From the NCBI GenBank assembly GCA_001642005.1, contig LWCA01000440.1:1-27273 (forward strand): a stretch of 27,273 nt of DNA, given 5' to 3'. Of this stretch, positions 4,410 to 27,273 are shown in pieces. A program made the position numbers and the translations under genes. The first letter of the stretch is position 1. Each line of letters begins with the position of its first letter. The notes below the pieces were generated by a model. That model was not told the origin of the DNA. It made no database searches and was given only the letters and a program-made list of their open reading frames with translations. The DNA is from Intoshia linei. Taxonomy: Eukaryota; Orthonectida; Rhopaluridae.

Positions 4410-4866
4410 TGTCTCAATATGTTATTATCTTAAATATTCAATTGTTTTATGTTTATTTATAACATGGGTGGTAAATTAAACTTTTAAATTGTTATTTTAC
4501 AATATCATCATTTTAAATGACTATGTTAATTAATTTTTTTATTTTAAGAAATAAATATTTCTGTAAAGTTTAGACATAGATATTATATGAACCGTTATAA
4601 TTCGTTTTCATGCGACTCATACAACAGTGTTTTCCAAACTTTTTTAAACAATAGCCCTTTTCGTCATTAAAAAATAATCGCCTCATCAATCCATTTATTT
4701 GTACAATGTACAATTTATAAAATAAATAACAAATTGTTTTTGATGAGAACCTTGAGCCTGATGTTTATCACATAATACATTGAAATCGATCTGAGATCAA
4801 TGAAAACATTAGTAAATATTGTACTAAACATTATTATCCTATTTCTATATCCAAGCAAATAACTTT

Positions 4867-5084
4867 CACGTAGTTAGTGAGCATAGTAAATGACAGTGAC
4901 TTGCATATATTAAATAATTATTTCCGGAAATTTTTTATTCTAAATACTATTCTGGTCATTACTCCAAAATATACTAAAAATAGATAAAAATATTTATTAT
5001 TAAAAAATTTTCTAGTTCATAAAATAAAATTTAAAAATCATCCGTTGGCAATCACTATAATTTACTATGCTCACTAACTACGTG
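4867..5084. mobile_element. MITE of unknown class with about 35-bp TIRs
   Basis: The left end reads CACGTAGTTAGTGAGCATAG and continues as TAAATGACAGTGAC. The right end is its reverse complement with few changes (TTTACTATGCTCACTAACTACGTG). The 218-bp element is non-coding. No clear target duplication is seen, so the superfamily is undecided. Confidence 0.6.
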
Positions 5085-5594
5085 CTATTGTTAATGCGTT
5101 TATAAAATTTAACAATATATTCTTCAGTTAACAATTTATAAAAACTTTTCTATTAATAATTCTAAGAATTGTCGATCAGTTTCATGAGTCCTGCTTCATT
5201 ATCAATTATAATATAATAATCTGTATTAATAAAATAATTATAATTATCTAATCAATAAAAATTTACAAAAAATATAAAATATGTAAAAAAATGACACAAT
5301 TTTTGTTTTATTATTAAAATTTTCACAATTAGGTTTACAAATATCAATAGAACCCTCTTAAAAATTTTGTTTGAATAATATCCTATTAACGATATCACAT
5401 TATTTTAGTATAGTCTAATATTTGACATTAACTATTAAAAACAAAGCCGCCCACTTTAGACCTCGTTTTTTACAGTAAAAAAGATGCAATCTTCAATATC
5501 TTGCATTATAAGGATGATGTTAAACAGTTACATTATTTTATTGTTATCTATACATATAATATGTTTATTAGTGTATTTCACGGTATGTCACTAC

Positions 5595-5952
5595 TAGGAA
5601 TGTCAGACTCAATTTTCTTGGCGGGCTAAATGTAAAAAAAATTATTACGCGGGCCGCACAAAAAAATCTTTACTCAAAAAATTATGTTAAAACTAACAAA
5701 TTTAATTAATTTATAATAATTTTAATTCATAAAATGAAATAAGAAACAATAAAAACAAAATAAGTGTAAAAATAATGTTAAAATTGTAATAATGAATAAA
5801 TATATCATGAAAAATAGATGAAAAAACTGTAAAATAAGAAGTATGTGTAAAAAATTGTTATAAAAAAATAAAAATTTATATTATAACGCGGGCCGCACAT
5901 TCCATAATTGGGGGCCGCAAATGGCCCGAGGGTCGCATAATTGACATTACTA
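5595..5952. mobile_element. hAT-type MITE, family A
   Basis: It is bounded by a perfect 8-bp target duplication GTCACTAC (5587-5594 and 5953-5960). Its ends are inverted, TAGGAATGTCAG ... ATTGACATTACTA. The interior is A+T-rich between two GC-rich GCGGGCCGCAC blocks shared with the copies at 2825 and 25169. Confidence 0.85.
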
Positions 5953-6361
5953 GTCACTACGAAGCACTTTAGAACCAAATCACTAGTTTTATAAAACTTA
6001 AAATATTGTGAAAAAAATTTTTATAAAAATTTGTTTGAAGTGGCAAAAGATAAAATAATATTTCGATATTTATATGATGATCAAAATCAATTTGATAACT
6101 AAATTGTATTGTAAAAAATTAAAAAAATTAAACTTAAATAAGGAGTGAATTATATACATCTACGTGAATTTAAAACTAATGTATGATCAGAGATTTTTTC
6201 TATTGGTCCCTGTTGTCAATATATATTATACAGTAGTAACCTACAACAACAAATTAATAATGATCTCAGCTTGCATTATTTACTTTGTATATTTTGATTA
6301 TTTTAATTTAGCCCCAGTTTCTTTATTTTGAATTTTAGTATATATAACACTTATATACATG

Positions 6362-6626
6362 CAGGGCCATGAAGACCATTAGTAGGCTTCGATCAGATAC
6401 AAATTGTAGGCCTGTATAAATTTTTTTTAAAAAATGGGACCTCTATACATTGCTTAATCGATCGTTCATTATCTAAAAATTTAAAATAACTAATTAGACT
6501 GTTAATAGAACATTTTATTATACAATAATTTAAATTTTCAATGATTACCTATAAATAAATTAAAAAAGTAGGTCCTCATGATTGTAGGTCCGGGTCATAT
6601 GGCCCTAACCACTCTCCACGGTCCTG
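6362..6626. mobile_element. hAT-type MITE, family B
   Basis: A 265-bp element with a perfect 8-bp target duplication TATACATG (6354-6361 and 6627-6634). It begins CAGGGCCATGAAGACC and ends CTCTCCACGGTCCTG, imperfect inverted repeats. The related copy at 21895-22129 shares the CAGGGCCRTG end and GGCCCT subterminal blocks. Confidence 0.85.
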
Positions 6627-7557
6627 TATACATGGTTTATTAATTTTTAATTAAAAATATTAAGTTATTGCACTTATTTGTTACAAAATATAGATGCATG
6701 ACGAAATTTTTAAAATTTATATTTTTATAAATAAATAATATCATCTTTCCATGATAAAATTTCAAATACACATTTTAAATGTGAACCGGATACTAAAAAC
6801 ATTGTAATACAATTAAAAAATATTCATTTTAACTATTAAATTGATTTCAATTGATAAATGTATATTAAGCAGTTAATATATTGTCTTAGTAATTGAAAAA
6901 ATCGATAAGATGTGTCGCAAAAAATATACAAAATACAAAGTATTGTATGTGATACAGTATATAAAAAAATTAAATTGTTAATTAATCAGTAATGTCAAAC
7001 ATGCGGCCATTTAAATTTAAGTAATTGAATATCAAATTAATTTCAATATATTAACATACATGTATGTAAGTAACATGACGTTACTTTTACTGGTGATGTT
7101 ACTAACATATATAATTATAGATTATAGAAATGTTTTTGTAAAAGAAAATATCAGATATTAAAAATAAAAATTGAATTTCCTATTTAGTTTTTATTTACAT
7201 TTTGACAATTCTGTACAAAATGACATGTTGTAGCATATTAGGAAGTGGTAAAATTTTGATATTATAACAATGAGGTATTATAACATACGTATTGACTTTT
7301 TTATTGTTCATTAAAAAAAAAGTAATAAAAAAGAAAAAAAAGTCAATATAAAAATCTAAAAGTAACAAAAAATGTATCTAAATATCATTAATGATAATAA
7401 ATTATATTAAACTAATGCATTAGTGTTGAATAAATGTAGTTAAGCAAATAAAACATTAAAGCTTTAATGGGAGCATCAAAAAATTATATTTAAGCGGAAT
7501 TAACTGAATAAAGTTGATTACCACTGCTTTAATTGGATAAATTTCAATAACATAACA

Positions 7558-7563
7558 TTTATT
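7558..7563 (-). terminator. Poly(A) signal of TRAPPC5
   Basis: TTTATT on the plus strand is AATAAA on the minus strand, about 65 nt after the TRAPPC5 stop codon. Confidence 0.45.
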
Positions 7564-7625
7564 AACGACAAACTAAACCATAATAATTTGAATCTTATCA
7601 GTGATATGTGATCTGTGATAAATTA

Positions 7626-10600
7626 TCACATATAATTATGAGCTTGATTCTTGATTGCAGATGGATTGAATTTAATAATGTATACAGTTGAATTTTCGTT
7701 GTGCCATTGTGTTTTAACTGTACAAGTCTAATTGATAATATACTAGTGGTTCTTAAACTATGAAATCCACAAAATCCGACCCAGTTCACCCACACTTGAC
7801 ATTAAAATTTTTATGACGTCTCAAAAATACTCAAAACAAAAATAATTATTATATTTAAATAAATATTGTTTTTTGAATTGAAAATAGTCATTTTGAATAC
7901 ACAATCTGTAAAAATCTTTTGCAAACTCATTGATAAATTATACAGACTCCAGTTTAAGAAACACTGCAATATACAATGTAATTATAATTATTAATGTTTA
8001 CATTTTATAATTTAATTAATATTTATAATAATGTTAATATTTAAATTATGTAATAATGCCACACAATAAAATGCATTTAAATAATTGCAGTTTAATTTAA
8101 ACCACATTGTGTGCCAACTGCATATCTTCCTCGATTTTTCCCATATGTGGTTTAATCATAATAAAAAACTTATGATAATTACAAAATTTGTAGAATTTAA
8201 AAATCCCTCTATTATTCCTCCAATATACGCAGCACAATTTGGACGGTTTTCTAATAACATAGTTACATTAATGCATATCGATTTATTCATATTATACCTA
8301 ATGGATCTGTTGACAATGGTATACATTTTGTTATGAAAGGTTTTGATTCAAAAATATAATCTAAATACGTTTTACTAATACATAAATATACATAAATACA
8401 TTCAATGGACAGTCGATTCTGTTCTATATGAACACGATGGGGCCAGGTTTTGATCATGTTCATACTATACTGTAATATGAACATATATGAATGGCGATAA
8501 TAATATAATTAAAAGTTTCGAAATGTCCCACTAAATGTTTGTTCAAACAAAATTGTCGTGTTCATATTGATCTGAGTTCATATTCTAGGGTGTTCATATA
8601 AAACAGAATCGACTTTATTTATAAATGAATGTAAACTGGACATCAAAACCTTCAAAATCTTATATTTTCACGACCAAAACAACAAATTACCCTTTTTTAT
8701 AAAAATGAAAAAATGTCCTAGAATTTTATAAAACATACATTCTAAGATAGTTTTTAAAATCATAAGCATAATCATAAATGGCAACCTCAAAATGTTCATT
8801 TTCACAATCAAAACCACAGATTACCCTTTTTTTAAAAAACGAAAACAGCCCTAGAATTTTTAAAAAAATTACAGATGATATCCAGTTAACACACACAAAA
8901 AATGTCAATCGGACAATATGACGCTTCATGGTCAAAAAAGCACTCATGTATTTACTCGGCATAGCTACATTATATGTAGGTACTGATTGTACAAAGTACA
9001 TAAATTCAAGCTACTGTCTTTTCTCGATTATAAGCAGACCCCTGAAATACAAATTTTTAGTAAAATTTTTAACTAAATAAATTTTCAATATAAGCAGTTT
9101 CTGTTTGTATTCGAAAGAAAGAACTTTAAAAAAGAAATAAACAACATATCAATTTATTTCTAAAAAATAACTTCCTTCATACAATAGAATGTCTAATTTA
9201 TAAGTTTATACTAATTAGAAAAAAACTTTTAGTGTATTTTTTATATTTTTCAAGGTCTGCTTAAAAGTCTGCTTGTTTTTGATTATGAGCATTTTTTTTT
9301 CTCTCGATTATTAGAAGACTTCTTATAATCGAGAAAAGACAGTAGTATATTACATTAGTTATAATTACATGTCAATTCATCACCACTACCTTGTTCAACA
9401 CTGTCTGGTTTTTTTTGAAATAAACTCTGAAATTTTAATTAAAAAGAATACGTTTAAATCAATAATATATAATTACTTTCCACAGCGTGCTAGAAATGAG
9501 GTTTAGAATATCGGCAATATTATTTTCTTTTTTAAACGACTTTTCCCTCCATACTAAGACGTCTATTAAATGTTTGCCAGTGGTATTTCCAATTTTAGTC
9601 AATCTGTACAATCAATACATTAATGATTAAAATAGGGATCGCCAAAGCGGGTCATATGGAAACTGGGTAAGTTAAATATATTTATGGTTGAATGGTTTAC
9701 ATTTTTAGGCTAATATAATATTATGATGGTTACGAACCATGTTATTTTATTCTTTAGATCAGTGGCCACCAAACTTTTTGACATGGGGCCGGAATAACTA
9801 AAAAATTAAGATACTTTAGCAAAAGCACTTTAGTATTCATATACAGTAATCTCTCCAGAACTCGCCAACTCTGTATCTCGCCATTGATTTAAAATATAAA
9901 ACTAAAATTTTTAAAACTATTTTTCAGAATTATTTACGATTTTGTGTACTTAAGTTTTATATCACGTTGAAATTTAAAATGCTTCTAAATCGCAAAAGAA
10001 AAGGTTTAATAAAGCAGATGGATAATAAATTTATTTAAAAAGATGAATCTGTATAGTACACTTACAAAAAATTGTATTTATATTCTATTCTATTTACTGA
10101 TTTATTATTTAGTAAACCCATTTTTATAATTCAAATGTAATTTTTAGAAATTATTTAATTAAAAAAATAAGTAATTAATTTCAGCTGCAAAAATGTATTT
10201 TTTGATACGATAGATTTTAATTATTTTGTATTAAATTTTACAATTTCATTGGAATTTAACCTTTTATTTAAAAGTTTTATCTGTTATTTCTATAGTTTTA
10301 AATCCTCTATCTCACCACATTCCCTATCTCGCCAACGTTTTCGAAATCCCAAGAATGGCGAGTTATAGAGAGAATATTGTATTTTATTAAAACAAAAAAT
10401 GTGAAATAATCAACGGTCCGAAAATTAAAAAAAGAAGATTACTCTGATAGAGCTTATTCCAGTTGATATAAATACAAAATTTCAAGCCCACAAATTTACG
10501 CATTGCAATATATTATCAACAAATATTTTTGAAATATTTCGATTAAAATAAAAATTAAAAATGTAAATATTAATCCTACAATTTCAAAAAAAATGTGCAT

Positions 10601-11944
10601 TGAACGTCTACACATTTCCAATGTAGAAACATGGGTACAAATTTACATAATTCATTCCTTCGGAATTTTTTTTATTTTCTCTATTTTCAATTCTCTTTAA
10701 AGTAAAAAGTAATGTGATATGATGGTTCCACCTGAAAAAAGTTTGGGAACCACTTCTTTAAAGGATTGATAATAGTGAATAGTAGGATTTTTAAGTTAGA
10801 TTTTCAACGTGAATTTATTTTTTAAGTATAATAAAAATGTGCTCTCGGCAGAGCTAGGTCCTGTTTGTACGTAGTATGTAAATTTATTTTTTGGTAGTAT
10901 AAAAATGTTCCCTCGGTAGAACTAGGCTACGGGGATTGATAATAGTGAATAGTAGAATTTTTAAGTTAGATTTTCAACGTGAATTTTTTGATATCATAAA
11001 AATGGGCCCTCGGCAAAGCTAGGTGCTGTTTGTACGTTGTACATAACAGTCAACCTAGTGTATCTATAAAATGTATGTACTTTAGATATTTAATAGACAT
11101 TTTTTACGTTTTATAATATTAAATAATTGATCATTACAATAAATAATAAAAATTTGAAAAAAATCAGATTCAGCTGCCGGCGTACTATTTTGGAAGCACT
11201 ACATTAGAGTTTGCAACACGTTCCGACGCACGATTATGAGTCCGAAGATTAGATATTTGTTTTCAGATTATACAGCTACCGAATGATTGTAAACCATAAT
11301 TTTTAATTTGTAAACATTTTGAAAGTTTGTTCTTCAGACCGAAATGTTTGGATTGCGTTGCAAAAACTCTACTACATAATAACTATTTACTATAGAATAT
11401 ACTTTTCTTGTAATAAATCTATCGATGAGGTCACAGATTTAGCATAATTAACAATCGCACAAAAAAGCAATGCTAAAGTATCAAATTGTATCTAAATTAA
11501 TGTTATCATTTTTTTATATTTAACGATGGAATGGTAAAATTGATAATGTTGGCATTCAGTAAAATATTAACATTAGGGAATGTTATGAAAAAATTACAAT
11601 TTAGGCTTAAAAATTTAATAGTTTAGTCATTATATGGTACCGCGAGGATAACATAGTTATGACATAATTGGTAAGCCACACATTAACTGGTTAGTTCAAA
11701 TGCTGTATTTTGTTCAAATAAAATTTTCGGTTAATTTGACGACACTGTTTATGTGAAACATACATACAAAGTATATTATGTCCAAGGATTGATTAATAGA
11801 ATTAAAAAATAGTTTGATCCACTATTAATAATAATACTACTAATGATTTAGACAATTAACAAAAATAAAAACATCATATCGTGTTTTTCCAATAGATTTT
11901 TCAAATATAGCCAATTTAGAATTTTCAATAAATTTTTCTTGCAT
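7626..11944 (-). CDS. TRAPPC5: TRAPP complex subunit 5 (Bet3-family vesicle tether)
   Basis: TRAPPC5 (yeast Trs31) is a core subunit of TRAPP, the tether and Rab GEF acting in ER-Golgi traffic (family knowledge). Seven exons join with matching phases: 11944-11873, 11491-11403, 9603-9477, 9426-9369, 8360-8298, 8250-8183, 7727-7626. The product is 192 residues (human 188). Family landmarks appear in order: an N-terminal MQEKF start; TLALLFCAIVNY; HLIDVLVWREK; LWKSLF; DELTYYIFESKPF; NCAAYIGGIIEG; and TQWHNENSTVYIIKF near the end. Introns are 381, 1799, 50, 1008, 47 and 455 nt. The larger ones carry a hAT element, tandem repeats, a mariner MITE and a hAT MITE, none entering an exon. The protein is unusually diverged but open throughout, so I take it as functional. 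The exon 1 start rests on phase and resemblance to the family N-terminus. Confidence 0.88.
7744..7966. mobile_element. hAT-type MITE, family C, in TRAPPC5 intron 6
   Basis: It begins TAGTGGTTCTTAAACT and ends AGTTTAAGAAACACTG, inverted. The 8-bp flanks are TAATATAC (7736-7743) and CAATATAC (7967-7974), one mismatch. It starts only nine bases upstream (in transcript sense) of the last TRAPPC5 intron acceptor, so it sits right beside the branch-point region. Confidence 0.7.
8411..8614. mobile_element. MITE of unknown class with repeated TGTTCATAT motifs
   Basis: Terminal inverted repeats AGTCGATTCTGTTCTATATG ... CATATAAAACAGAATCGACT bound a 204-bp non-coding element. The motif TGTTCATAT or its complement recurs several times inside, like subterminal transposase-binding repeats. 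No target duplication was identified. It lies in TRAPPC5 intron 4. Confidence 0.6.
8640..8960 (-). repeat. Modular dispersed repeat, inverted copy
   Basis: Read on the minus strand it carries the GACCATGAAGCGTCAT, GTGTTAACTGGAT and AAATTCTAGGGCTGTTTTC blocks in the same order as the 870-1555 copy. It lies in TRAPPC5 intron 4. Confidence 0.65.
9014..9342. mobile_element. Tc1/mariner-type MITE in TRAPPC5 intron 4
   Basis: The 329-bp element has long inverted ends, CTGTCTTTTCTCGATTATAA ... TTATAATCGAGAAAAGACAG, each flanked by TA, the expected target duplication. A second internal pair of CTGCTT/CTCGATTAT repeats lies near 9255-9310. It ends 26 bases from the exon ending at 9369, within the 5' part of the intron. 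Confidence 0.8.
9844..10379. mobile_element. pogo/mariner-type MITE nested in the hAT element
   Basis: The ends CAGTAATCTCTCCAGAACTC and GGCGAGTTATAGAGAGAATATTG are imperfect inverted repeats, each flanked by TA. Internal CTCGCCA blocks are repeated near both ends. At 536 bp it is too short and too stop-ridden to encode a transposase. Confidence 0.75.
10395..10600 (-). repeat. Core part of the modular dispersed repeat, inverted
   Basis: On the minus strand it reads through GGAATAAGCTCTATCAGAGT and matches 870-1060 over most of its length (TTTTATTTTAATC, TTGATAATATATT, GAAATTTTGTATTTATATCA). Confidence 0.65.
10763..11060. repeat. Two tandem copies of a 170-bp unit ending in a hairpin
   Basis: GGATTGATAATAGTGAATAG starts at 10763 and again at 10933, each followed by TTTTTAAGTTAGATTTTCAA and a CTCGGCARAGCTAGG segment. 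The second copy ends in a 40-nt imperfect inverted repeat (11019-11058) also seen at 16666-16705. It lies in TRAPPC5 intron 2. Confidence 0.75.
11206..11370. mobile_element. hAT-like MITE, family E, beside TRAPPC5 exon 2
   Basis: The element begins AGAGTTTGCAACACGTTCCG and ends GGATTGCGTTGCAAAAACTCT (inverted). Flanks ACTACATT (11198-11205) and ACTACATA (11371-11378) are an 8-bp duplication with one change. The larger element at 24139-24623 has the same GAGTTTTGCAACACG end. Confidence 0.7.
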
Positions 11945-13764: not shown

Positions 13765-16700
13765 TTATAATTTTTGAATTTCAATTCTTTTTTCAATCTC
13801 CTTGCAAAACTGTATATAATTTATTTCGTCTCCCATTCGATGTGATGACGTAAACATTTCTGATAATAAAGACCATTCATACTCATTTTGAACAAATTTT
13901 GCGATATCTAGAACCCCTAAAATTCGTCTAAATTGATTTTTAGTAACGTATCCATTATTAACAATATCGTAATCCTTAAAAAAATGACTAATTTCGATTT
14001 GACCAAGTTTGACAAATTTTGCAATTTTTAAAAGTACACAATCAGTTTTTTCTATGGCTAAAAAGTTTGTATTTTCAACACTATTCATAACAATTTCCGA
14101 ATCTGAAAACGTCTGAGGTTTAAGATTGAACCGTGGACTCTTTTCCAAATTTTTTTGAGTGAAAGCTGAATTAATGTCATTATAAAACTGAACAATGTTT
14201 ACATATGTTAATTCCTTGTTTTTTGTTTCTTTAATTTTATCACTTTTGTAAATTTTAATTAATTCATCAAATTCATTATTCGACAATTCTATGCCTTGCA
14301 TTGATAATATTCTTCGAAATTGTGAGGCCGAAATATGCCCATGGTGCAACGGATCAAAGTCATTATCCCATTCTGTTATTCTCAAAGATTTATGATAGAC
14401 AATTTGACGAATTTTTTTGATGGCGTTTGTAGTTACATTCTGTTTTTCTAGTGATGAATTTTCAATTTTTGGTTTTGATGTAATGGGTTCACAATTTATC
14501 ATATCTGGATAGTTTGTTTCCATATACGTTTTAAAATCGTTTAGAAAAGTTTTGTAACTAATTTTTCCTTTATATGTGCAATACTTGAGAACATCTTTTA
14601 ATATTCCCGGAATAACTGTATGGGGTTTTCTTGCTTCCAAATTTATTGTTTCGTTTGTTATCAATTCTCCTTTTGTCGGTAATTCTGCACTGTAAATTAG
14701 AAATGAATTTATATTAAAATTAATGTTTTTTAGACCTCTCAAGAAATTGTTTAATGTAACGTAGCCAGAATTATGACTGTCAAACTGAGTAAATGTATCC
14801 TTTATGTCCATTGTATTTGTAGGGTTCATTAGACTGCACAAATTTTCAAATAATTGCGAGTATTCGGTTCCAAAATCTTTTGCTTTTAATTTTCCCATTC
14901 TATTTCCATTGTTGTCTAAATAAAATTGGATATCATCACTGATTCTATCGGTAGGATTCTTGTTAATGTCTGGCTTTGATATTATGTATTCCACGTCATT
15001 TTTAAACAAATTCCAGTTTACCATGTACAATTCATTTTTACCTGATTTAAACAGGTTCTTTTTAATTTGATAAAAATTTGCCAAAAAATCTAAATCTTTT
15101 TGGGGTATTGGAGATTTACCCAATGTACTAAATCCAATATTGCTCAGAATTCTTTTGAATTGTTGTTTTGTTATCATACCTCGACGTAATGGGTCAAAGT
15201 ATAATGGTTCTTCTTCGATTCTGATACGATATCTTAACATGTGATCTCTTATTTTCTTTAATAAGTATTTGCATTTTTGTACATCTTGTGCGTCAAATGG
15301 AATCAAGCTTTCCTCGTTTTCGTTTTCATTGTTAATTTTTTTTAATGATTCATAATCTGTCGGTAGGATATACTTTTCCTTCTCACGTTTGTTTCCATCT
15401 TTTTCAATCTAAATTTATGTTACTTGTGTTATTATAATAATTATAATTATTATCATGAAAATTAATGAATTATGTATTTTTATGTTTTTTAAGTAAATGT
15501 TTCAAACGTTTAATCGTGATTTTTGGAATTATTGTAAAACGGTGTAATTGGGAAGTGTTTTAAAACGGAAAGTTTATAAAAATTATTATTTTGATAAGAT
15601 TTTTTATAAAAACCGTTTTAAATTTTTAAAATTTATTTATTTGCGTATTTGTTCCAGTTTATTTAACCCTTTCACTGTCTGATGCAATTTTATGTACCAT
15701 CACCACACGTCTGGAATTCATGTTTTAATTTAAACTTTTATTATTTTTAAATTACTTATGAGAAAATGTATGAAAATAAAAGAATAACGTTTTTCAAAAT
15801 TATGTTGTGTATATCATAGAATACACAGACGTGCCAAGTGAAATTGCTGTGTATAGTATAGAATACACAGACAGTGAAAGAGTTAAGACAGTAAGGAGAG
15901 TCGAGTTTTACAAATTTCATATCCTTATAAAAGTTTTTTCAGAGTGATTTTTTATCCCAAATTTCAATTTCAGGAATTGAATCGTTCAAGGTTAAAAACC
16001 CCAATTGTCAGTTACGGAGACCCTTGCATATGAGTGGATCTGGTTGTTACTTGTATTTAGTATATTTATATATATTTATTTTTAAATTCTAACCCGTCCT
16101 AGAATTATAAAAAATACACATTCTAATAAAACGTTTTAAATTCATCAATATTATGAAAATTTTCATCTTCAAAATCTTATATCTTCACGGCCAAAACCTC
16201 AAATTACCCTTTTTTTTAAAAATGAAAAAAGTCCTAAAATTTTATATAACATAAATTCTTGCATAGTATTTTAAATCATAAACATTATCATAACTTGTAA
16301 CCTCATAAAAGTGAAATTTCACAAACAATTCCCAGATTACTTTTTTTTTAAAAAATTAAAATATTCCCAGAATTTTAAATAAATTACAGCTAATAGAGTT
16401 ATATCAAATTAAGACATAAAAAAAATTTCAATCTGACAAAGTAAAGCGTTCACGATCAAAAAAGCATTTTAGTATTCATTTTTTTCACCGGGAATGCGTA
16501 GATTTCTGGAGTTGAAATTTTGTATTTATATCAATGGAATAAGCTCTATCAAAATAATTTTTTTTTTAATTTTGGTACCGTTAATTTTGGTAAAAGTGAA
16601 TATAAACATGTTTAATAATTGTGAGATAATTATCTAAGATTAGAAAATTTGACCCTTGGGCAGAGCTAGCTACTGTTTGTACAAAGTACATAACTGTCAA

Positions 16701-18196
16701 GCTAGTCTAATAATAAATTAAACTTTGCAAATTCACCTCATAACTAATCAATTTACAAAAAAGTAAATAATCCACAAAGTTTGAATCTTTGCTAAAGTAT
16801 GAAACCAAATTATCGTAATCATGAGGTTGAAATTGATAAGTTTTAGAAAAAGTCATATCTAGCGCAGACACAAATTTATTGATTAAAATTTTTCCATGTC
16901 CATGTTTATCATAATCTTTGAAAAATTCAATAGGTCTGATACCATAAATGTGTGATATTTTTTTTAGTCTAATAAATAATTTTTCACATTGAACTTTGAA
17001 ATTATCCGAATTTTTCTCTTCTTCTCGTAGAACCTTAATTTCTTGTAATTTTCTAATTTGATGGATTTTTTTGTCTTTATGTTTCAATAAATTTTCATTA
17101 TTTTTACTAATATTCATAAATAATAATAAATCATTATGTAGATTCATGTAATTGACCGTTTCACTTTTAGTTTCATCTTCATATGTGTCAATTATCAAAA
17201 GTTTTTCTAACGTGGAAAGTTTATTATAATATAAACAAGCCCTAGAAAATTGCCATTTTGTAATTGTGCCCATATTATATTGGTCAAAATCCTTACATTC
17301 ATCTCTCAATGTAATTTCAAATGTATTATAATGTAATGCCATTTTTTTTAAACAATGATTCAAGTCATTTCTTTTATTAACAATTTCACTGTTCAAATCA
17401 TCTTTTAAATTGAAATTCTTTTCGATCGTAGAGAATTTGAAACTTTTATTTTCAATTATATTGGATATTGAGTCAATATCTAATGAAAATTTTTTATAAC
17501 AAATTCTACGTTCAAATCCACTTAAGAATCCATAATTAGTAAATATTAATTGTTTTGTTTCATGTGTATACAATTTTTGTGTCAATTGCCACAAAACTCT
17601 GTAAAATTGTGTTTCTGTTATAGAGTTTTTATTCGTCATGTCAAAATCGGCAAAATAATCTACCATACGTATACTTCGAGTGTAAATACATTTCGCAATG
17701 TTGTACATTAGAGATTCAAATGGTTTTTTTTTATCGACATCATCTTTAACATTAAATTTTTCTTGCATGGCTACTTTCGCCATATTGCTGACATTGTTGA
17801 TTTCTTTTTTGTTATTTAAACTCTTTGATACCATTTCATTTTTAACGCAAAAATCGTTGACGTTTTCAGTTTTGTTTATATTAATTTTCTTACTTGAATT
17901 ATCTAGATTTAAGATTGGATAATTTTCATTTCGATTTTTTTCATAATCATGTTCAGTTTCATTTTTAATTGAATCTCGCGTTTCATTTGCTAAATCAAAA
18001 TTTGACTCGTTTTCAAAGTGAACGTGTTTTTCTTGATCCAGGTTTACAGACTTTGATTTCAATGAATTCATAGATTTGCTTTTTTTTGGTAATTTTGAAT
18101 TAACCTATATATAAATATATTTACGATATATGGTTTGTTTTCATTGTTTTCTATTGGTTTCAGCTGTTGTTGTAATTGTTTAACATGAATGTACAT
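13765..18196 (-). CDS. Large EF-hand-repeat protein with degenerate loops
   Basis: Exon 16737-18104 joins exon 13765-15408 across a 1328-nt intron in phase 0 (GAG|GTGAAT...TTTAG|ATT). From the ATG at 18071 the protein has 992 residues. A 5' exon at 18125-18196 would add 35 residues but needs a 20-nt intron, so it is doubtful. The first 120 residues are acidic, lysine/asparagine-rich and probably disordered. EF-hand loops follow near residues 144, 263, 388, 517, 655, 797 and 926, each shaped DxxxxGxI/VxxxQF (DPLHHGHISASQ, DIVNNGYVTKNQ; the first loop has N for G). Position 12, normally Glu, is Gln, Asn or Lys in all seven, so calcium binding is doubtful. Tandem EF-hand proteins of this kind occur in cilia and sperm tails (EFCAB6-like); I infer a structural role there, weakly. 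Frames are intact. Confidence 0.75.
15667..15882. mobile_element. piggyBac-type MITE in the EF-hand gene intron
   Basis: CCCTTTCACTGTCTG ... CAGACAGTGAAAGAG is flanked on both sides by TTAA (15663-15666 and 15883-15886), the piggyBac target. Inside, TGTGTATATCATAGAATACA and TGTGTATAGTATAGAATACA are a direct subterminal repeat next to CAGAC. It is 216 bp and non-coding. Confidence 0.85.
16110..16585. repeat. Rearranged copy of the modular dispersed repeat
   Basis: The module half (16157-16475) is inverted, reading GATCGTGAACGC on the minus strand. The core half (16490-16560, GGGAATGCGTAGATTTCTGG) is in plus orientation. In the 870-1555 copy both halves face the same way. Confidence 0.7.
16666..16705. 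repeat. 40-nt imperfect hairpin, dispersed copy
   Basis: CTAGCTACTGTTTGTAC, loop AAA, then GTACATAACTGTCAAGCTAG form an imperfect inverted repeat. It lies 31 bases inside the EF-hand intron from its donor. The same structure is at 11019-11058, with degraded relatives near 8975 and 18662. Confidence 0.65.
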
Positions 18197-18774: not shown

Positions 18775-21700
18775 TCAACGATCCTCAGCAATGAGCTTGT
18801 TGGCTAATTCAATTAATGTGGTCAATTTAACATGAATTATGTCAAGTTTAATATGAGTTGATTGAATTGTAGATAGTATATTTTTCAATAATTCATTTTT
18901 TCGATTCTTCAATCCATCCTCAACCTTGGTGTCTAAATTTAATTTCATTCAACTGAAATAAACTTAAACTATTTCTTAATTAAAAATAAATATTATTAGA
19001 ATTGTGAACCATCATTTAATTAAAGGAAAACATTTCAATATTTTGATTATTTGTAGTGGTGTTTAAAAAATGCAAAATGTCCTTTATTGTAAAATTTCAA
19101 ATTTTTGAAAATTTCAAAGTTTATTAAATAATTTAAGATTATTATCCCTTAGATTCTACGCTTAGAACCAAAATTAATATCAATGTGATTTTAAAATGGA
19201 CTAAATTTAGAATTGTAAAATATATTACAGTCAGACTCGTCAATAATGATACCCTCAATAATGAATTTTTTGAATTGTGAATGATTTTTTGTAAAATTGT
19301 GACTGCACCATTGTAAAGATTATGGAATTTCATGATTTTATTGAAATGGATCAAATTCATTATAATGAATTTATAAAAAAAGTTTTTAATTTTTAAGCAA
19401 AGTTTTATTTCAACCCGATATTAAAATATTTTGAGGATAATCTTAGTTCCAAAAATTTGTGGGGTTTTTAAGCAAATATTTTTAACATTTATAGGGTCTA
19501 CAAAACCTTTAAAAATTTTGTGAAACAAAATATAAATTGTTGGTTTAACCATTTTCATGGTTACTATTATACTAATTTAACCTAAGACCTAGACCACCTG
19601 TAAATTTTTTGAAATTCTAGGGCTGTTTTTATTAAAAACAGAAGGTTAATTTGTGGTTTTGGCCCTGATAATATAATTTTTTTAAATTTAAATTTATGGT
19701 AATGTTTATGATTTTAAAATCCGTATCAGCGTATATATTTTTTTAAATTCTCGAACTCGTTTGATTTTCAAAAAAAAGACAATTGGGATATATATTTTTT
19801 TAAATTCTCCAACTCGTTTGATTTTCAAAAAGAGGGACAATTTATAAATTCTCCAACTCGTTTGGTTTTCAAAAAAAGGGAAAATTGGGGATTTTGAACC
19901 GTAAGATGTGAGTTTGGAAGGTTGAAATTTATTTTATTATACGTCCCGGAAAAAACTGTAATTGAAATGTGGACTTTATAAAATTCTAAGACTGGTAGTT
20001 ATTTCAATAAACGATAACACAAACAAATATTGCATAGTATATTATAATATGCTATGATTATATAAGTACACACACACAAACAAAAATCGCGTAGCATATT
20101 ATATAAGTTGGGATAAAATGAATTTATTATTATGAAGACTTATCTTAAAATGTTCGTTAAATCAAATCAATGTTTAATAGTGAATCTGTCAAACATCTGA
20201 CATTTAGGGTTGATTATTGACAATTATGACTGTATTAATTTAATTGGTAACGTAATTTACTTCAATTTATTAGGTTTTAAAAAAATAGATCACTATAAGC
20301 CAGTGATTCTTAACCAGTAAACCGCAAAAAAATTGAAGATTATTATATAAATTTTTAAAAATTAATGTCAAAAGTTTACATTGACCATGGCGTGTCAGAC
20401 TCAATTTGCTTGGCGGGCCGCACAAAAAAAATCTATACTCAAAAAATTAAGTTAAAACTAACAGATTTAAATAATTTATAATAATTTTAATTCATAAAAT
20501 GTTCATAATACATTAACTATAGACGCTGGTGAAATTAGACGCTGTAACTATTAAATTATATGTTGCAATAATAATATTGTTGTAAATGTACCTGTTTCGG
20601 TAACATCATGAGTTTCAACGTTCTTATTTTTCATTTTTCCAACTAAAATTCAAAATAAAATTCAATTACAGAATTCATTGACAAACAATATAACAAAGTT
20701 TATATAACTTCAAATATAGCTATAATATTTTTTTATATAATAATTCTTACACTTAATTTTGTTTTATATATGCGACTTATAACAAATATTTACATTATAA
20801 TACGAAAAAACGTGTTTAATGACATGTTAGTAGTAGTAACGACGACAAATGAACTTTTAGAATAATAATACATGCATTAATTAAATTAATATTTGTTTAA
20901 ATAACAAACAGTGTACGTTAGGGTGTCACACCCATCAAAGAATCAAGCATGGTTAGCGTGCAAATCGTGTATTTTAAGGAAAAACCAATTAATATAAAAT
21001 TTTATTTTATTTTCATCAATTCTTCAAAAGTAAATAAATATAATTAATTTTTGTGACGTTTACTATATCTTTCAGCAATTAAAAAATATTAAATTAAAAT
21101 TTAAACAGCAATTAAAACCATTTTGACTTGTAGCAAAGTTAAATTATTGAAACAAGGTGCAACCTCAAAAGTTCGATGGACGTGTCGCCTGATATATGAT
21201 CTGTTACAGTCTAAAAGCATATTTTCTCAATGTAGACAGATCTGAATTAATGTTATCTTTTTTAAGACTTACCGGGTACGATTACTATTATTATTAAGTT
21301 TTGGATGGATGCGAGCTACGCTAAAAAGGTCACGGTCAAAAAAGCATTTTAGTTTTTATATATTTTTTTTTACGAAATATCCAAATATTATATTAAAACA
21401 AAAAATGTGAAATAATTAACGGTCCAAAAATTAAAAAAAAAAATTATTCTGATAGAGCTCATTAAAAAAAATATAATTTGTGGTTTTGGCCCTGAAGATA
21501 TATTATTTTAAATTTAAATTTATGGTTTTAAAATCCGTATCAGAATGTATATATTTTTTTAATTCTTCAACTCGTTTGATTTTCAAAAAAAAACCAATTG
21601 TGGTTGTTGACCCGTAAAATGTAAGTTTGGTAGGTTGAAATTTATTTTGGTAACACCCCCGGAAAAAACTGTAATTGAAATGTGGACTTTATAAAATTTA

Positions 21701-24700
21701 AAAACTGGTAGTTATTGAAATAAACGGGAACACACACACAGACAAATGTTGCGTAGCATATTATATAAGTAAGAATTTTTTAAAGATAATAAAGAATTTT
21801 CTTTTTTTTTTTAAAAATAACTATCGTAATATATCAATCTGTTGCTGTGGTTTCCAAAAAAATATTAAAAAATTACTCCCCAGTCAGGGCCGTGGACAAG
21901 GAGCTAGAGCCATATGGCTCGATCTACAATCATAAGGCCTAATATTTTAACTTATTATTAGGTAATGTTGGAAAATTTCTTAAGTATGTCAAAATTATGA
22001 TGACCAATGCGATTTGAAACTGTTATTTTCAATAATTAAACAATTTATAGACATCCCAACTTAAAAAAATTATAGAGGGGCCTACAATTTCCATCTGGCC
22101 CTGGCCTACTTCTGGCTTTCCACGGCCCCAGTATATAAATATTTTATATAGTCTTACAAATCATTTGCGAAATTTTTTAGGTTTTTATTTATTATTTTAA
22201 TAGCCGCAAGTATGGTAGGTTCGGCTCTGGTACATATATTCAGATATTTAATCATCTTGAATTATAACGTCACTATAAAAAAATTAATGATGTGTTTTTT
22301 AAATTTCCACACTCTTGTTTTTTAAATAATACATTGCAAATTGCAACACTAAAATTCAATTTAAAAAAGAAAAAATTACTTATATTTTTTTCAATTTTAT
22401 ATTCTTCTTCAAGTTTTGTTAAGGCCTTCCTCTCATTATCCGATGATTTATAATTGGTTTTTTTCTTTTTATCCACTTGAATACTTTCTTTCTCAACCAA
22501 CTCAGAGCTTGATGATTTTGCTAAACTATTCTTCTTCCTATCATCTTTTTTGAAAAATTTATTAAACTTCGAAGAAAATGATTGTTTTATAGGTTTTTCT
22601 TCATTTTCAAATTTTCTTTTATTTCTATCTGCATCGGTAATCTTACTTGTTTTATCTTTTAGATCTTTTTCTACCTCTACACTAGACGGACGTGAATCAA
22701 CCATTATTTTTTTATAATCTAAATCTTTGTTAAATGGATTTAATTTTTCGTTGTCCAACTCGTCATTTTTTTCTGCAGCTTTAGATAGAAATGATAATGA
22801 ATTTTTTGTCTTTTGTGTCGATTTTGCATTTTCATCAACTGTTTCAACTTTAGATTTTTTCGTCGTTTCTATTTTTTCAAGCTTATCTAATTTTTCAGGT
22901 TTTTCTAATTTATCAGTTTTTTCCAATTTATCAATTTTTTGAAATTTTTCAACATTCTCAGACATTTCATTAGATTCTGTGGAAAATGGGTTATTTCCAA
23001 TATCATTATTTTTTATTTTTGAAATAAATTTCTTTTTTAATGGTAGTATTTGAGGTTTACCAATTATTTTTTGTTTTTCATCGTTCTGAGAAACTGTTTT
23101 TATTGAATTATTAGGTAATTTAAATTGAACTATATCTGGCTTTTTCGTTATTATACTAGTTTTGAATTTAACATTTTTGGAATCTTCTTTGTTATTCGCA
23201 ATTTGGCCTGAAAAGGCTAGTTTCTTTGGAATTGTTAGATTTTCCAATTTTTCAAATTTCTCAGCTTCACATTCGTTTCCTACTTTATCTGGTATATTTA
23301 AATCATCAATCTTTTCAGTTTCATTTACTTTATCCACTTTATTTATGTTTTGTGTTAAATTTTCATTTTTATTTTTTAATATTCCCGTCATTTCTGTTTT
23401 TAAAACTTCTATGGACTGTCTTTGCTTTAGTATTTCAATTTGACTATATTCTAAAATGATTTTATAATTCGATAAAAAGTTTAAATTTAATATAATTTGA
23501 TAATTTTTTTAAAATACAAAATATGTAATATTTCACGCCATTATCGATCACCTCAGCTTGAAACGAATATAAAACATTTACCAGTGTTTCCTTACTGCCA
23601 TTCAGCATCATTTTCTACTGATCCCAAAAAGTATGCATCAAATAGTAAATTTTATTGCAAATTGTCAAAGGGGTGCCAAAATTTAACAAAAAAATTTAGT
23701 CTGCGTCAATAAATTGACTAACAATCCTTAAATTATTAATATCATTAATTTTGACTATTAAATTATTATGAAATATTACGTTTAGTATAACGTCTTGTTG
23801 GTTTAGGGGGTTTAGATTCTGTATCGAGTGAATCTATTGATAAATTATCATTTTCGCTTTCTTTTTCAGAATACTTTGGCATTTTTTCTTTCGTTATTTC
23901 TGTTAATGTCTTTATTTCTTTTATTTCTTCTTTTTCATTTATTTTTTTTTTGTCATGTATATTTTTATTAAATTTAGTGTTTTCGATTGTTTTTGATTTT
24001 TGTTTATCAAATACTTCGTTTTCTTTTACAGATTCAATATTAATTTCACTTTTTGGTAGGTTTTTAGTAATAGCTTCTATTAATTTTTAATTAAAAATGG
24101 ATTAATAATTATAATGAATATTCCCCTAGTAATATAAATTAGAATTCTGCATTGGATCGTGTTGAGATGATATGTACGAACAAAACGAAACATTTTTGTC
24201 CGAAACACGATCCGACACGATTTATATCAGGGGTCGACAACCAGTGGCCCACATAATAATTTTGTTGACCCTTTTAGTAAATATGTAAATTATTTATTTT
24301 TAAGTTTTTCAACCTTTAAATACCGCTTTACACATTTTCTAATATAATTGGCTCATTATAATTATTTTAATTCTGAATTTTCAGATCGGCCTGGATATTA
24401 TTTTTTGAATATACTGGAATCGTTTCTCTGCAGTTGAAATTAAAATTTATCATGTGTAAATTTTCAGAAACGGGGCCATATACTTTTTTGATATAAAAAG
24501 TGGCCCACGAGACGCAAAAGGTTGCCGACCCCTGATTTATATGATATTATATGATGATAAATATGAAAATTTTGTAAAGACGATCCAAAGTTCTGTTCGG
24601 ATCGGATCGTGTTGCAAAACTCTAATATCAATATAAAAAATACCTTCGAATAATTCGTCTGGTTCTAATATAAAATATTAGTTTTATTAATCTTTGACAA

Positions 24701-26092
24701 ATTGTAAATTAAAATTACATTGGTAAACATTTTTTGTACCAATTTTAAGTCATACTAGATCAGTGTTCCCAAACCCTGCGTCGCAAAACAAATTTAGAGA
24801 TTTTTAACTATAATTCAAAAATTTAAAAATTCACACTAAAGTTATACATTTATTTGTACTTGAATTTATGTTTGTGTTTTATGTTATATTCCTAATTTTT
24901 CAACACATGTTTGAGTAAGAAAAACAAATAACCAAACGTTTTTAGAGTAATTTTAATAATGCTTAAAAATTTAAGTTTAAACATTTCTTCATTCATTATT
25001 CACATTCCTTAGGGACTATTCCATCAAAACCCAGTAAATCGCAAAAAGCAAACCGGCATATCGATTTGAAATGTTGAAAAGTTTTTTACATATTCGGTAC
25101 GCCGTCAAATATTCATTAATTTTGAGTGCACCGCTACCTTGAAAAGTTTGGGAACCATTGTACTAGATCAGGGGTGTCAATTATGGAATGTGCGGCCCGC
25201 GTTATAATATAAATTTTTATTTTTTATAACAATTTTTTACACATATTACAATTCTTATTTTACAGTTTTTTCATATATTTTTCATGATTTATTTATTCAT
25301 TATTACAATTTTAACATTATTACACTTATTCCATTTTTATTGTTTCACATTTCATTTTATGAATTAAAATTATTACAAATTAATTAAATCTGTTAATTTT
25401 AACATAATTTTTTGAGTAAAGATTTATTTCGTGCAGACCGCGTAATAATTTTTTTTCACATTTGACCCGCCAAGCAAATTGAGTCTTACACCCCTGTACT
25501 AGATCAATGGTTCTTTTTTATTGAATTACGGAGGGAATTTAAAAAAATATTTCTGCATTTTTGATTAGGGGGTGATTCTAAATAAAGTTTAAGAACACAA
25601 CACTAGATTGTTTGTTTTGTAATTCAAGCAAATTGCATAATATTTATTAATTATATGAATAATTTCAACTTTTCGACCTCGTATAACAAACTCTGTTATA
25701 TAAGTACTATAAATGTAAGTTAAGTCAAATTGCATCTTTAAATTTTATTTTTACATTAAGGTCACTAACATAACTCTCAGAAAACTTTAAAAGTAAAATA
25801 AAATAATGATAACTCAAACCTAAAATAATATAATTGAAGATAAACCTGCATAATCGACGAAAATTGATTTTGGCCTTCTTCCTTTCGGTAATTTTGCGCG
25901 TATATCGAGATCATTTTCTAATAACTGTGATGAATCTGTTTCTGATTTAAAGCGTAATATGCCAGTGTTTTTATTTTTTGTATTGGGGGAAAATTTATTT
26001 GGTGGGAATTTACCATTTTTTGGAGATGTCAAAGTGTTGCCTATTTTCAAACCAAGTTTGTTTGCTAGCATATTAATATTACTTTTACTCAT
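18775..26092 (-). CDS. Lysine/glutamate-rich disordered protein, six exons
   Basis: Six exons join with consistent phase: 26092-25846, 24664-24644 (21-nt microexon), 24076-23780, 23450-22380, 20642-20592, 18932-18775 (TGA). All five introns are phase 1, giving 614 residues. The N-terminus (INMLANKLGLKIG ... RAKLPKGRRPKSIFVDYA) has the look of a short linear-motif region; the basic RRPK core recalls capping-protein-interacting motifs of CapZIP/FAM21-type proteins, but this is a weak likeness. The microexon adds EPDELFE. The middle is charged and mostly disordered, with a KLEK/KLDK repeat (DKLEKTDKLEKPEKLDKLEK). The last 45 residues form an amphipathic helix or coiled coil (NELLKNILSTIQSTHIKLDI). 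No enzyme domain is seen. Introns carry most of the right-hand MITEs. Further small phase-1 exons could have been missed in the two introns of more than 1.5 kb. Confidence 0.65.
19590..20110 (+). repeat. Modular dispersed repeat copy
   Basis: It carries AAATTCTAGGGCTGTTTTTA, the GGTTTTGGCCCTGATAATAT module, three short repeats of CTCCAACTCGTTTGATTTTC (about 60 bp apart at 19745-19880), and the AAATGTGGACTTTATAAAAT ... GCGTAGCATATTATATAAGT end. It lies in the last intron of the lysine-rich gene. Confidence 0.7.
20301..20500. mobile_element. Truncated MITE fragments
   Basis: A lone hAT-like end CAGTGATTCTTAACCAGTAA at 20301 resembles family C. From about 20392, TGTCAGACTCAATTTGCTTG and the following GGCGGGCCGC block match the left half of the family-A element at 5595. 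Neither has a second end here. Confidence 0.55.
21325..21775. repeat. Rearranged copy of the modular dispersed repeat
   Basis: An inverted module and core (GGTCACGGTCAAAAAAGCAT, then ATTATTCTGATAGAGCTCAT) run into plus-strand modules (GTGGTTTTGGCCCTGAAGAT) and the usual end GCGTAGCATATTATATAAGT near 21752. Confidence 0.7.
21895..22129. mobile_element. hAT-type MITE, family B
   Basis: It begins CAGGGCCGTGGACAAGG and ends GGCTTTCCACGGCCCC, inverted, with internal GGCCTACAATTT-like blocks as in the copy at 6362-6626. The right end is worn and no clean target duplication was found. Confidence 0.65.
23497..23712 (+). CDS. Possible small nested gene, unrecognised
   Basis: An open frame of about 70 residues on the plus strand lies wholly within an intron (23779-23451) of the minus-strand lysine-rich gene. 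Its base use is less A+T-biased than its surroundings, and it reads PVFPYCHSASFSTDPKKYAS and then a basic, cysteine-containing tail. It could be a retrocopy fragment or chance. No family was recognised; the track's first codon is not an ATG-strong start and no splice sites stand out. Confidence 0.2.
   Translation: MIIFLKYKICNISRHYRSPQLETNIKHLPVFPYCHSASFSTDPKKYASNSKFYCKLSKGCQNLTKKFSLRQ
24139..24623. mobile_element. hAT-like MITE, family E, hosting a nested MITE
   Basis: The right end, GGATCGTGTTGCAAAACTCT, is the reverse complement of the family-E end seen at 11206. The left end is TTAGAATTCTGCATTGGATC. Flanks AATATAAA (24131-24138) and AATATCAA (24624-24631) are an 8-bp duplication with one change. 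Internal CGATCCGA/CGTGTT blocks are repeated in both orientations. The element is split by the MITE at 24228-24534. Confidence 0.6.
24228..24534. mobile_element. hAT-type MITE, family F, nested
   Basis: A perfect 8-bp target duplication ATTTATAT (24220-24227 and 24535-24542) bounds ends CAGGGGTCGACAACCAGTGG and GGTTGCCGACCCCTG. It is 307 bp, non-coding, inserted in the family-E element. Confidence 0.9.
24761..25160. mobile_element. hAT-type MITE, family D (first of three stacked)
   Basis: It starts CAGTGTTCCCAAACCCTGCG and ends AAAAGTTTGGGAACCATTG, inverted. TACTAGAT flanks it on both sides (24753-24760 and 25161-25168). It is 400 bp, in the first intron of the lysine-rich gene, 96 bases from the microexon. 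Confidence 0.9.
25169..25496. mobile_element. hAT-type MITE, family A (second of three stacked)
   Basis: It starts CAGGGGTGTCAATTATGG and ends TGAGTCTTACACCCCTG. TACTAGAT lies at 25161-25168 and 25497-25504; the left copy is also the right duplication of the preceding element. Its interior matches 5595-5952 in reverse orientation. Confidence 0.9.
25505..25600. mobile_element. Short hAT-type MITE, family C-like (third of three stacked)
   Basis: It begins CAATGGTTCTTTTTTATTG and ends AAAGTTTAAGAACACAA. TACTAGAT (25497-25504) is on its left and CACTAGAT (25601-25608) on its right. The ends are worn, so this element is less certain than the two before it. Confidence 0.55.
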
Positions 26093-26384
26093 TTTTAGTT
26101 TTTAATATATAAAGTAAATTTAGAATATCACGTATTAAAGATTCAATACTTTATTGTGTATATTTATTCTTTTACATCAAGAATCTACAGCTGAATCAAT
26201 AATATGTATTACATTACATTTATACGTTATAACGAGGGCAAACTTTTTCTAACCTATAAAATCGTCAAAATATAACCTATCAAAATAAAATTCGAACTTT
26301 TTTAACTTATAAAAAATACATTAAACATTCAATTTGGTCACCCTGTTAAAAATAATTTAAAAAATTAAATATTAAGATTTATTA

Positions 26385-27273
26385 AGGTACAATATTAAAT
26401 ATTTATTAACGTTACTAGATAAAAAATTCCTTTGTTTTGTGAGTAATTTCTTCAGCATGCTAAAACTTCTTTCTACACCGTTAGAAGTTGAAGGGCCATT
26501 TCTCAATTGGCTGTACAATGAAGGAGGTTTGGACTGATCCATAGCTAACATAATTTTTTTGATATCATTCTTTTTTAGTCTTTTTTCTATATATAGTTGT
26601 ATTTCACATGGGTCAGGAATAAATTATATTTTTTTATTGTATCATATGCTTGATAAATAATGAACGACTCTTTTGCCATGTCAATAATACCTAATATAAA
26701 TGTATACCTGTTTAATTCAATTAATTCATTATATAATCCAATCATAGATACAGCTTTCCTCGCTCGCTGTATAATTACACCATTTCCGGGTATACCATCT
26801 ACAATTTTTTTACCAATTCAAATTTGTTGATATAGTAAACACTGGCTTCAAGCCAAGTACCCCACCTTGTAATCACTGGTCTGGGTGGATAACCAATGTC
26901 ATAAAACAATTCGCGGAGCGATTTATTCTTTAATGTAATAAATTTCATACTGTTGATGAGTTCGTCAACAATTGTATATTTCTGTCGAAGCTTCATGCAA
27001 CAGTTATGCATTAGATGGCTTATGCAAGTAACGTTGAATAAATTTGGATACAGCATTTTCAATTGTGATGTGATCGATGTATTGAATCTAATATTGATAT
27101 TATATATATATTTGCAATTGATAAAAAAATTAAAATTACCATGCAGCATCAGTTACGAATAAAACAAAATTTTTCCTTTTTATATTTAAAGATTTAGCAG
27201 TGTCGTCCACATTATGTAAAACAATTTGACCATTCATGTTTGTATTAATCATTTCACAGTCAAACAGCATTAA
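26385..27273 (-). pseudogene. hAT transposase (DUF659-type), frameshifted, partial
   Basis: Reading leftward from the window edge, the minus strand encodes FVLFVTDAA, then after a stop or gap VTCISHLMHNC, then ITRWGTWLEASVYY, and finally the hATC dimerisation segment GVERSFSMLKKLLTKQRNF near 26500-26440. This order and these motifs are those of hAT-superfamily transposases with a DUF659 region (family knowledge). The frame is broken by a stop near 27145, by a one-base loss in an A-run near 26805, and by another shift near 26620, so it is dead. The BED zinc finger and the N-terminal half lie beyond the window. It could once have mobilised MITEs such as those listed here, but its own terminal repeats are not visible. 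Confidence 0.8.

What the first reader, a model, noticed from the sequence alone, without database searches (positions are those of the whole stretch)
24753..25608. Three different hAT MITEs stacked end to end at one 8-bp target
TACTAGAT occurs at 24753, 25161 and 25497, and CACTAGAT at 25601. Between each pair sits a different hAT-type MITE (400, 328 and 96 bp, with ends CAGTGTTCCC, CAGGGGTGTC and CAATGGTTC). Each later element went exactly into the target duplication left by an earlier one. hAT elements are not normally site-specific, so reuse of the same 8 bp three times suggests either a real preference for TACTAGAT-like sites next to an existing hAT end, or insertion guided by the resident element.
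Basis: seen in the sequence. Interest (0 to 1): 0.75.

Follow-up and report, generated by a model that had tools for sequence, protein, structure and literature searches.

The report
Three stacked hAT MITEs, one target
Three short jumping-gene remnants sit end to end at one 8-letter DNA site, most likely because this kind of element prefers such sites and copies the site each time it lands, so a good landing spot survives for the next one.

Summary
In detail: TACTAGAT at 24753, 25161 and 25497, CACTAGAT at 25601, and three hAT-type elements (400, 328, 96 bp) between them; the third is the least certain. The stack is not a repeated unit: of 46 listed genome matches to all 856 bp, only the window's own spans E1 to E3. 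Target choice is not random: the end motif CMYTG is followed in phase by CTAG 895 times genome-wide, against 218 one base out of phase, in line with the TA-centred preference published for Buster-type hATs. Since insertion copies its target, an occupied site stays a good target. Thirteen places carry hAT-like end motifs on both sides of one 8-bp CTAG site (reversed control 0), 11 outside the window. Target reuse predicts about 6.6 (5.2-8.7); no preference, 0.04-0.2 for an assumed 2,000-10,000 elements, before chance motifs. The 11 were counted by motif; one was inspected and not confirmed as a full stack. A real, known-type preference is supported. Guidance by a resident element is not needed, though an effect of up to about twofold is not excluded, and a triple at this half-matching site is unexpected under the simple model.

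The parts
24753..24760 (.). target copy 1, TACTAGAT
24761..25160 (+). E1: 400-bp hAT-type MITE, ends CAGTGTTCCCAAAC / (inverted) CAATGGTTCCCAAAC; 28 other matches, partial, 68-93% identical
25161..25168 (.). target copy 2, TACTAGAT, shared by E1 and E2
25169..25496 (+). E2: 328-bp hAT-type MITE of a repeated family (all 45 other matches to the 856 bp fall in it; best long match 93% identical)
25497..25504 (.). target copy 3, TACTAGAT, shared by E2 and E3
25505..25600 (+). E3: 96-bp hAT-like element, perhaps an internally deleted copy; no second copy found in the assembly as searched
25601..25608 (.). target copy 4, CACTAGAT (one change)
24228..24534 (+). E4: separate hAT MITE (CAGGGGTCGACAACC... 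/ ...GGTTGCCGACCCCTG) with its own duplication ATTTATAT at 24220-24227 and 24535-24542; a neighbour, not part of the stack

Best explanation
Target reuse without guidance. A hAT-type transposase, or a few related ones, that prefers 8-bp targets with TA and especially CTAG at the centre inserted three non-autonomous elements one after another at a single TACTAGAT site. Each insertion duplicates the 8 bp, so each one leaves two intact preferred targets where there was one, and a later insertion into either copy gives exactly this layout. Shown: the layout, the preference genome-wide by end motif, and that no other copy of the stack is among the listed matches. Inferred: that all three were moved by transposases of one preference class, and that insertions were sequential. 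The order is not recoverable from the layout; E2 has the closest relatives and so is probably the youngest.
For: Exact copies at three junctions and 7 of 8 at the fourth. CMYTG followed in phase by CTAG: 473+422=895 (pattern read backwards 85+91=176) against 115+103=218 one base out of phase. CMYTGNTCTAGA: 174+156=330, backwards 4+11=15. Of 24 hand-compiled duplications 18 have TA at positions 4-5, 15 have T at 2 and 18 have A at 7. 13 places have end motifs on both sides of one NNCTAGNN, backwards control 0; 8 of the 13 are NTCTAGAN. Two-class reuse prediction 6.6 (5.2-8.7), of which 2.2 are a real end facing a chance motif; for NTCTAGAN alone 4.5 against 8 seen (chance 0.09-0.11). No-preference prediction 0.04-0.2 pairs for an assumed 2,000-10,000 elements. 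Without the CTAG requirement, spacing 8 holds 8 of 100 listed pairs and 1 of 50.
Against: Observed pairs run above prediction: 11 outside the window (chance of 11 or more 0.07-0.09), 13 with it (0.017-0.026); treating all CTAG sites alike predicts only 4.2. In one search spacing 8 holds 7 of 50 listed pairs, more than spacings 6 and 10 (2 and 1) though fewer than 5, 7 and 9 (12, 12, 15). Three or more insertions at one CTAG site are expected 0.09-0.7 times genome-wide at end-motif sensitivity 1 to 0.5 (up to 1.7 at 0.35), and at a half-matching site such as TACTAGAT only 0.005-0.04 times. Of the 11 places outside the window only one (C398, L068) could be inspected, and its far target copies were not found within the 3 kb held; the 11 rest on end motifs. 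The number of CTAG sites was estimated from 190,749 held bases picked near hAT elements and motifs; a recount away from elements (119,753 bases) gave a similar CTAG number and fewer TCTAGA, 19 sites. Several E2-family duplications lack the TA centre (YTATTGAA in L006, ATCAGGAA in L003, GTCACTAC in the window).
Confidence: 0.77

Rival explanations
1. Resident-guided insertion: a hAT end already in place (through transposase bound to its ends, or the DNA shape beside a terminal repeat) draws the next hAT element to the adjacent 8 bp.
For: Observed pairs exceed the plain reuse prediction by up to about twofold, and a triple at a half-matching site is unexpected. In one search spacing 8 exceeds the other even spacings. 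Some other neighbouring hAT ends lie 15-17 bp apart (L024, L043).
Against: Guidance should act whatever the target sequence, but two of three listed sets of end pairs without the CTAG requirement show no rise at 8 bp (counted). Guidance should also leave the target spectrum of pairs like that of single insertions (TCTAGA about 306 of 677 CTAG ends), yet it is 8 of 13, or 8 of 11 outside the window, closer to what reuse predicts. The numbers are small.
Confidence: 0.12
2. One composite element that moves as a unit and carries E1, E2 and E3.
For: Terminal repeats at the outer ends and near-matching 8 bp outside would let it be mobilised as a block in principle.
Against: Of 46 matches to the whole 856 bp only the window itself covers more than E2, its flanking target copies and up to 5 letters beyond (40 of 332 candidates were scored). 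E1 has only diverged partial relatives and no second copy of E3 was found.
Confidence: 0.03
3. A local hot spot, not exclusive of the best explanation: this stretch is unusually open to insertion for reasons of chromatin or DNA shape, so many elements gather here, and the shared 8 bp follows from the hot spot plus the target preference.
For: Another hAT MITE, E4, ends 218 bp left of the stack with a different target (ATTTATAT), and what I take for hAT transposase remains begin about 760 bp to the right. It would explain the modest excess over prediction.
Against: hAT-like elements also occur elsewhere in the window; no measure of accessibility exists here.
Confidence: 0.2
4. Assembly artefact: E2, a dispersed repeat, joined two unrelated loci in the assembly.
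For: E2 is a repeat of about 330 bp in an assembly of 1319 contigs.
Against: Both flanks of E2 carry the same 8 bp exactly, and so do the outer sides of E1 and (7 of 8) E3; a chance misjoin would not preserve the duplication.
Confidence: 0.02

Closest known systems
Buster group of the hAT superfamily (TcBuster; Mar MITE of Drosophila willistoni)
   Same: 8-bp duplications with TA at the centre (nnnTAnnn); Mar ends CAG(G/A)GGTAGGC resemble E2's CAGGGGTGTC; 26,871 of 27,985 TcBuster integrations in human cells had TA at the centre (passages read: PMC3517528, PMC3499496).
   Different: Here CTAG and TCTAGA are favoured; no transposase is tied to E1-E3; 6 of 24 compiled duplications lack the central TA; the passages read do not speak of stacked elements.
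MITE multimers and clusters in rice (Jiang and Wessler 2001, seen only as cited)
   Same: Several MITEs together; 11% of rice MITEs in multimers as cited in PMC10664404 (passages).
   Different: PMC5907723 (passages) says that in rice MITE clusters insertion into existing elements is commoner than adjacent insertion; here insertion is adjacent, at the duplication itself.
gSaTar / AgS-MULE arrays of guayule and rice (PMC5907723, passages)
   Same: Intact different elements joined end to end because each lands in a preferred target that survives insertion.
   Different: MULE elements with 10-bp duplications that target microsatellites; not hAT.
M1 and M2 repeats of pithoviruses (PMC10664404, passages)
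   Same: Adjacent MITE-like repeats share one target duplication.
   Different: TA dinucleotide target, palindromic repeats often in (M1-M2)n-M1 arrays; not hAT.

Membership tests
hAT superfamily (non-autonomous) | 8-bp target duplication | tested here: met
   E1 and E2 8 of 8, E3 7 of 8. In held loci 27 structures with 8-bp duplications against 7, 2 and 2 for lengths 7, 9 and 10, and 25 for 6, which match more by chance.
hAT superfamily (non-autonomous) | short terminal inverted repeats of the CA..TG type | tested here: met
   E1 and E2 clear; E3 imperfect, right terminus TTG.. instead of CAG.., and not listed by the scan.
hAT superfamily (non-autonomous) | mobilised by a hAT transposase with matching ends | not testable with these tools
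   No autonomous partner of E1-E3 was identified. The reading frames at 26372-27273 reach the contig end; their Pfam matches are all below cut-off (Dimer_Tnp_hAT E 0.078, DUF4891 E 0.0097; Bac_DnaA E 0.092).
Buster group | TA at positions 4-5 of the duplication | tested here: met
   TACTAGAT fits; 18 of 24 hand-compiled duplications fit.
Buster group | transposase in the Buster clade | not tested
   No transposase assigned, so no tree was built.
MITE | short, without coding capacity, many similar copies | tested here: inconclusive
   Copy number met by E2 (45 other matches, 332 first-look candidates for the 856-bp query); E1 has diverged partial relatives; no second copy of E3 was found. No frame of 100 aa or more lies in the stack.
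Composite element | the parts recur together at other sites | tested here: not met
   0 of 45 other matches to the 856 bp span more than E2, its flanking target copies and up to 5 letters beyond.

The most novel reading that the evidence does not exclude
A hAT end already in place raises the chance of insertion into the adjacent duplication beyond what target sequence explains, by a factor of up to about two at CTAG sites, so hAT families build stacks in which a middle element can later leave by excision.
Probability: 0.12. Interest if true: 0.6.

Novelty: new member of a known kind. Interest (0 to 1): 0.36.

Why it matters
It gives a simple, countable account of why different MITE families can end up in shared-duplication stacks: the target is copied, not destroyed, so sites multiply (a pure-birth process), and the number of stacks can be predicted from the target preference alone. 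The same calculation gives a yardstick against which a claim of guided insertion can be measured.

Tried and rejected
Composite unit: disfavoured by the whole-856-bp search. Fourth TACTAGAT at 26413 as a further duplication: rejected, it lies inside a reading frame that I take, from recalled motifs, for transposase remains. General excess of hAT ends 8 bp apart: looked for with CCCTGN{0,30}CAGGG, CCCTGN{4,12}CARTG and CACTGN{5,11}CAGTG (spacings counted over 50 of 126, 100 of 268 and 50 of 146 places). Spacing 8 holds 1, 8 and 7; the largest are spacing 9 (14), 7 (24) and 9 (15). In one search the even spacings 6, 8 and 10 hold 2, 7 and 1, so that set is equivocal. The peaks at 7 and 9 were not followed up; most of the spacing-9 rows share one recurring interior. 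TA-centred pairs in general (79 places, backwards control 7): not used as evidence, because of the 50 listed 10 are the same 18 letters (CACTGCATTAAAACAATG or its reverse complement) and 5 more differ by one letter; two of the 10 (L063, L066) have a complete hAT-like element on the left. Checking pairs in held loci: of 15 loci, three have a complete left element with exact target (L063, L064, L066) and none had both far target copies found. One of the 15 (L065) was read at the wrong offset, because its match lies near the contig start, and counts as not examined. Transposase remains: no PDB match at E 1 or better for the 116-aa piece, only sub-threshold Pfam matches. Most subscription papers are not in that library, the classical MITE nesting work probably among them.

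Rows dropped before the 24-duplication tally: of 27 structures, seven were left out by hand (window 9621-11136, window 25169 as the same target as E1, L022, L039 1969-2564, L042, L054, L066 as a repeat of L063). Four were added by eye (E4, L005, L007, L043), of which L005 was seen on one side only. The tally is hand-picked and only illustrative; the genome-wide counts carry the argument.

Full report
What is there. The sequence shows TACTAGAT - E1 (400 bp) - TACTAGAT - E2 (328 bp) - TACTAGAT - E3 (96 bp) - CACTAGAT at 24753-25608, as described. E1 and E2 have clear inverted ends with CA..TG termini, and a mechanical scan for 8-bp duplications beside inverted ends lists both. E3 is not in that list: its ends align only with a gap and its right terminus is worn. 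I still take it for a hAT-type element, because its ends align with each other over GTTCTT and TTTATT and because a 7-of-8 copy of the target lies exactly at its right end. E3's left nine bases equal E1's right nine, so one transposase could have moved both (inference).

Genome. The window is contig C766 of an unnamed assembly, G000, of 34,653,042 bases in 1319 contigs. I take it for eukaryotic from its content. The best relative of the EF-hand reading frame at 13765-15306 among 26 matches is a beetle protein (Agrilus planipennis) at 23% identity, which does not fix the species.

Not one unit. Searching G000 with all 856 bp gave 46 matches. Only the window's own spans the elements; the other 45 lie within query positions 409-757, that is E2 (417-744), its two target copies and up to 5 letters beyond (40 of 332 candidates scored, so counts are lower bounds). 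E1 alone gave 29 matches, the other 28 partial and 68-93% identical. E3 gave only itself.

Target preference. Duplications of the E2 family read from loci include CTCTAGAC, TTATAGAT/C, ATCTATAA, CTATATAG and ATATAGTA, but also YTATTGAA, ATCAGGAA and GTCACTAC, which lack the TA centre. In a hand-compiled set of 24 duplications 18 have TA at positions 4-5 and 5 have CTAG. Genome-wide, the end motif CMYTG is followed in the right phase by CTAG 895 times and one base out of phase 218 times (patterns read backwards 176 and 162); for NTCTAGA the count is 330, with 15 for the pattern read backwards. The preference agrees with the published nnnTAnnn of Buster hATs (PMC3517528, PMC3499496; passages read). 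TACTAGAT has the CTAG centre and the A at position 7 but lacks the T at position 2, so it is a good but not a best site.

Reuse arithmetic. If insertions fall independently on preferred sites, and every insertion turns one site into two, the number of adjacent pairs is about K squared over S, where K is insertions at that class and S the number of such sites. When ends are recognised with a fixed sensitivity, detectable pairs equal (half the excess of end-plus-target counts) squared over S, so the sensitivity cancels. Site numbers came from 190,749 unique held bases: CTAG 312 and TCTAGA 35. The prediction is 3.7 pairs at TCTAGA and 0.7 at other CTAG sites, plus 2.2 from a real end facing a chance motif, 6.6 in all (5.2-8.7); with all CTAG sites treated alike it is 4.2. 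The search found 13 places (backwards control 0), two of them the window's own, and 8 of the 13 at NTCTAGAN. Excluding the window, which was chosen for this feature, 11 against 6.6 has a chance of 0.07-0.09; all 13 have 0.017-0.026. Without any preference 0.04-0.2 pairs would be expected for an assumed 2,000 to 10,000 elements, before chance motifs. The eight CTAG places whose letters were printed hold seven different targets, the window's two sharing one, so those seven sites are not copies of one duplicated segment.

Guidance or preference. Guidance by a resident end should make pairs at all kinds of target. Of the listed pairs of ends without the CTAG requirement, spacing 8 holds 8 of 100, 1 of 50 and 7 of 50, counted. 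The first two show no rise at 8. The third is equivocal: more than at 6 and 10 (2 and 1), fewer than at 5, 7 and 9 (12, 12 and 15). These lists hold only part of all places (100 of 268, 50 of 126, 50 of 146). The share of TCTAGA among pairs (8 of 11 outside the window, 8 of 13 with it) leans towards reuse rather than the 45% seen among single CTAG ends (about 306 of 677). Against a complete account by reuse: the pair count is somewhat high, and three or more insertions at one CTAG site are expected only 0.09-0.7 times genome-wide at sensitivities of 1 to 0.5 (up to 1.7 at 0.35), and 0.005-0.04 times at half-matching sites like this one. Finer preferences or local accessibility could close such a gap (inference), but an effect of resident ends of up to about twofold is not excluded.

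Limits. Of the 15 loci held from the TA-centred search, none showed all three target copies; three had a complete left element with exact target (L063, L064, L066), and one (L065) was not properly examined. The 13 are therefore counts of end motifs around a site, with a control of zero; only the window's own two are confirmed as a stack.

Verdict. The stack is real. The best account is repeated use of a preferred target that each insertion preserves.

Noticed in passing
24228-24534: A fourth hAT MITE (E4, 307 bp) with duplication ATTTATAT, ending 218 bp left of the stack; a relative 81% identical is in L003 and a partial one (79%) in L011.
   Followed up: partly
26372-27273 (minus strand): Broken reading frames running off the contig end that look like hAT transposase remains (recalled motifs; Dimer_Tnp_hAT match below cut-off, E 0.078); TACTAGAT at 26413 lies inside them.
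   Followed up: partly
G000:C352:18727-18998 and C271:19345-19370: By coordinates: in C352 two hAT-like ends with two TCTAGA copies between them (15 bp) and a third TCTAGA after a 245-bp element, the layout an excised middle element would leave; in C271 two facing ends with only 12 bp from end to end between two TCTAGA copies.
   Followed up: no
L024 1590-1630 and L043 1495-1530: Neighbouring hAT ends 15 and 17 bp apart. In L024 the right element has target CACTAGAG on both sides and the stretch between holds the inverted repeat CTAGTCACTAG; in L043 the E2 copy has CTATATAG on both sides.
   Followed up: no
G000:C351:7086-7104 and C346:12124-12145: Two E2 copies have a CAATG motif 9 and 12 bp beyond an end: near but not exact neighbours.
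   Followed up: no
window 2825-3148, 5595-5952, 6362-6626, 7744-7966, 20389-20501: Further hAT-like elements or pieces in the window; the first two and the last are E2 relatives. Duplications ATCATWAA (by eye), GTCACTAC, TATACATG and YAATATAC for the first four.
   Followed up: partly
G000: Two short motifs recur in many contigs: CCCTGTTTAGAAGACAGGG (spacing 9) and CACTGCATTAAAACAATG, the latter with a hAT-like element on its left in L063 and L066.
   Followed up: no
13765-15306 and 16707-18071 (minus strand): Two long EF-hand-like reading frames, perhaps neighbouring paralogues (the second scores below Pfam cut-off); nearest relative of the first is from the beetle Agrilus planipennis (23% identity).
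   Followed up: partly
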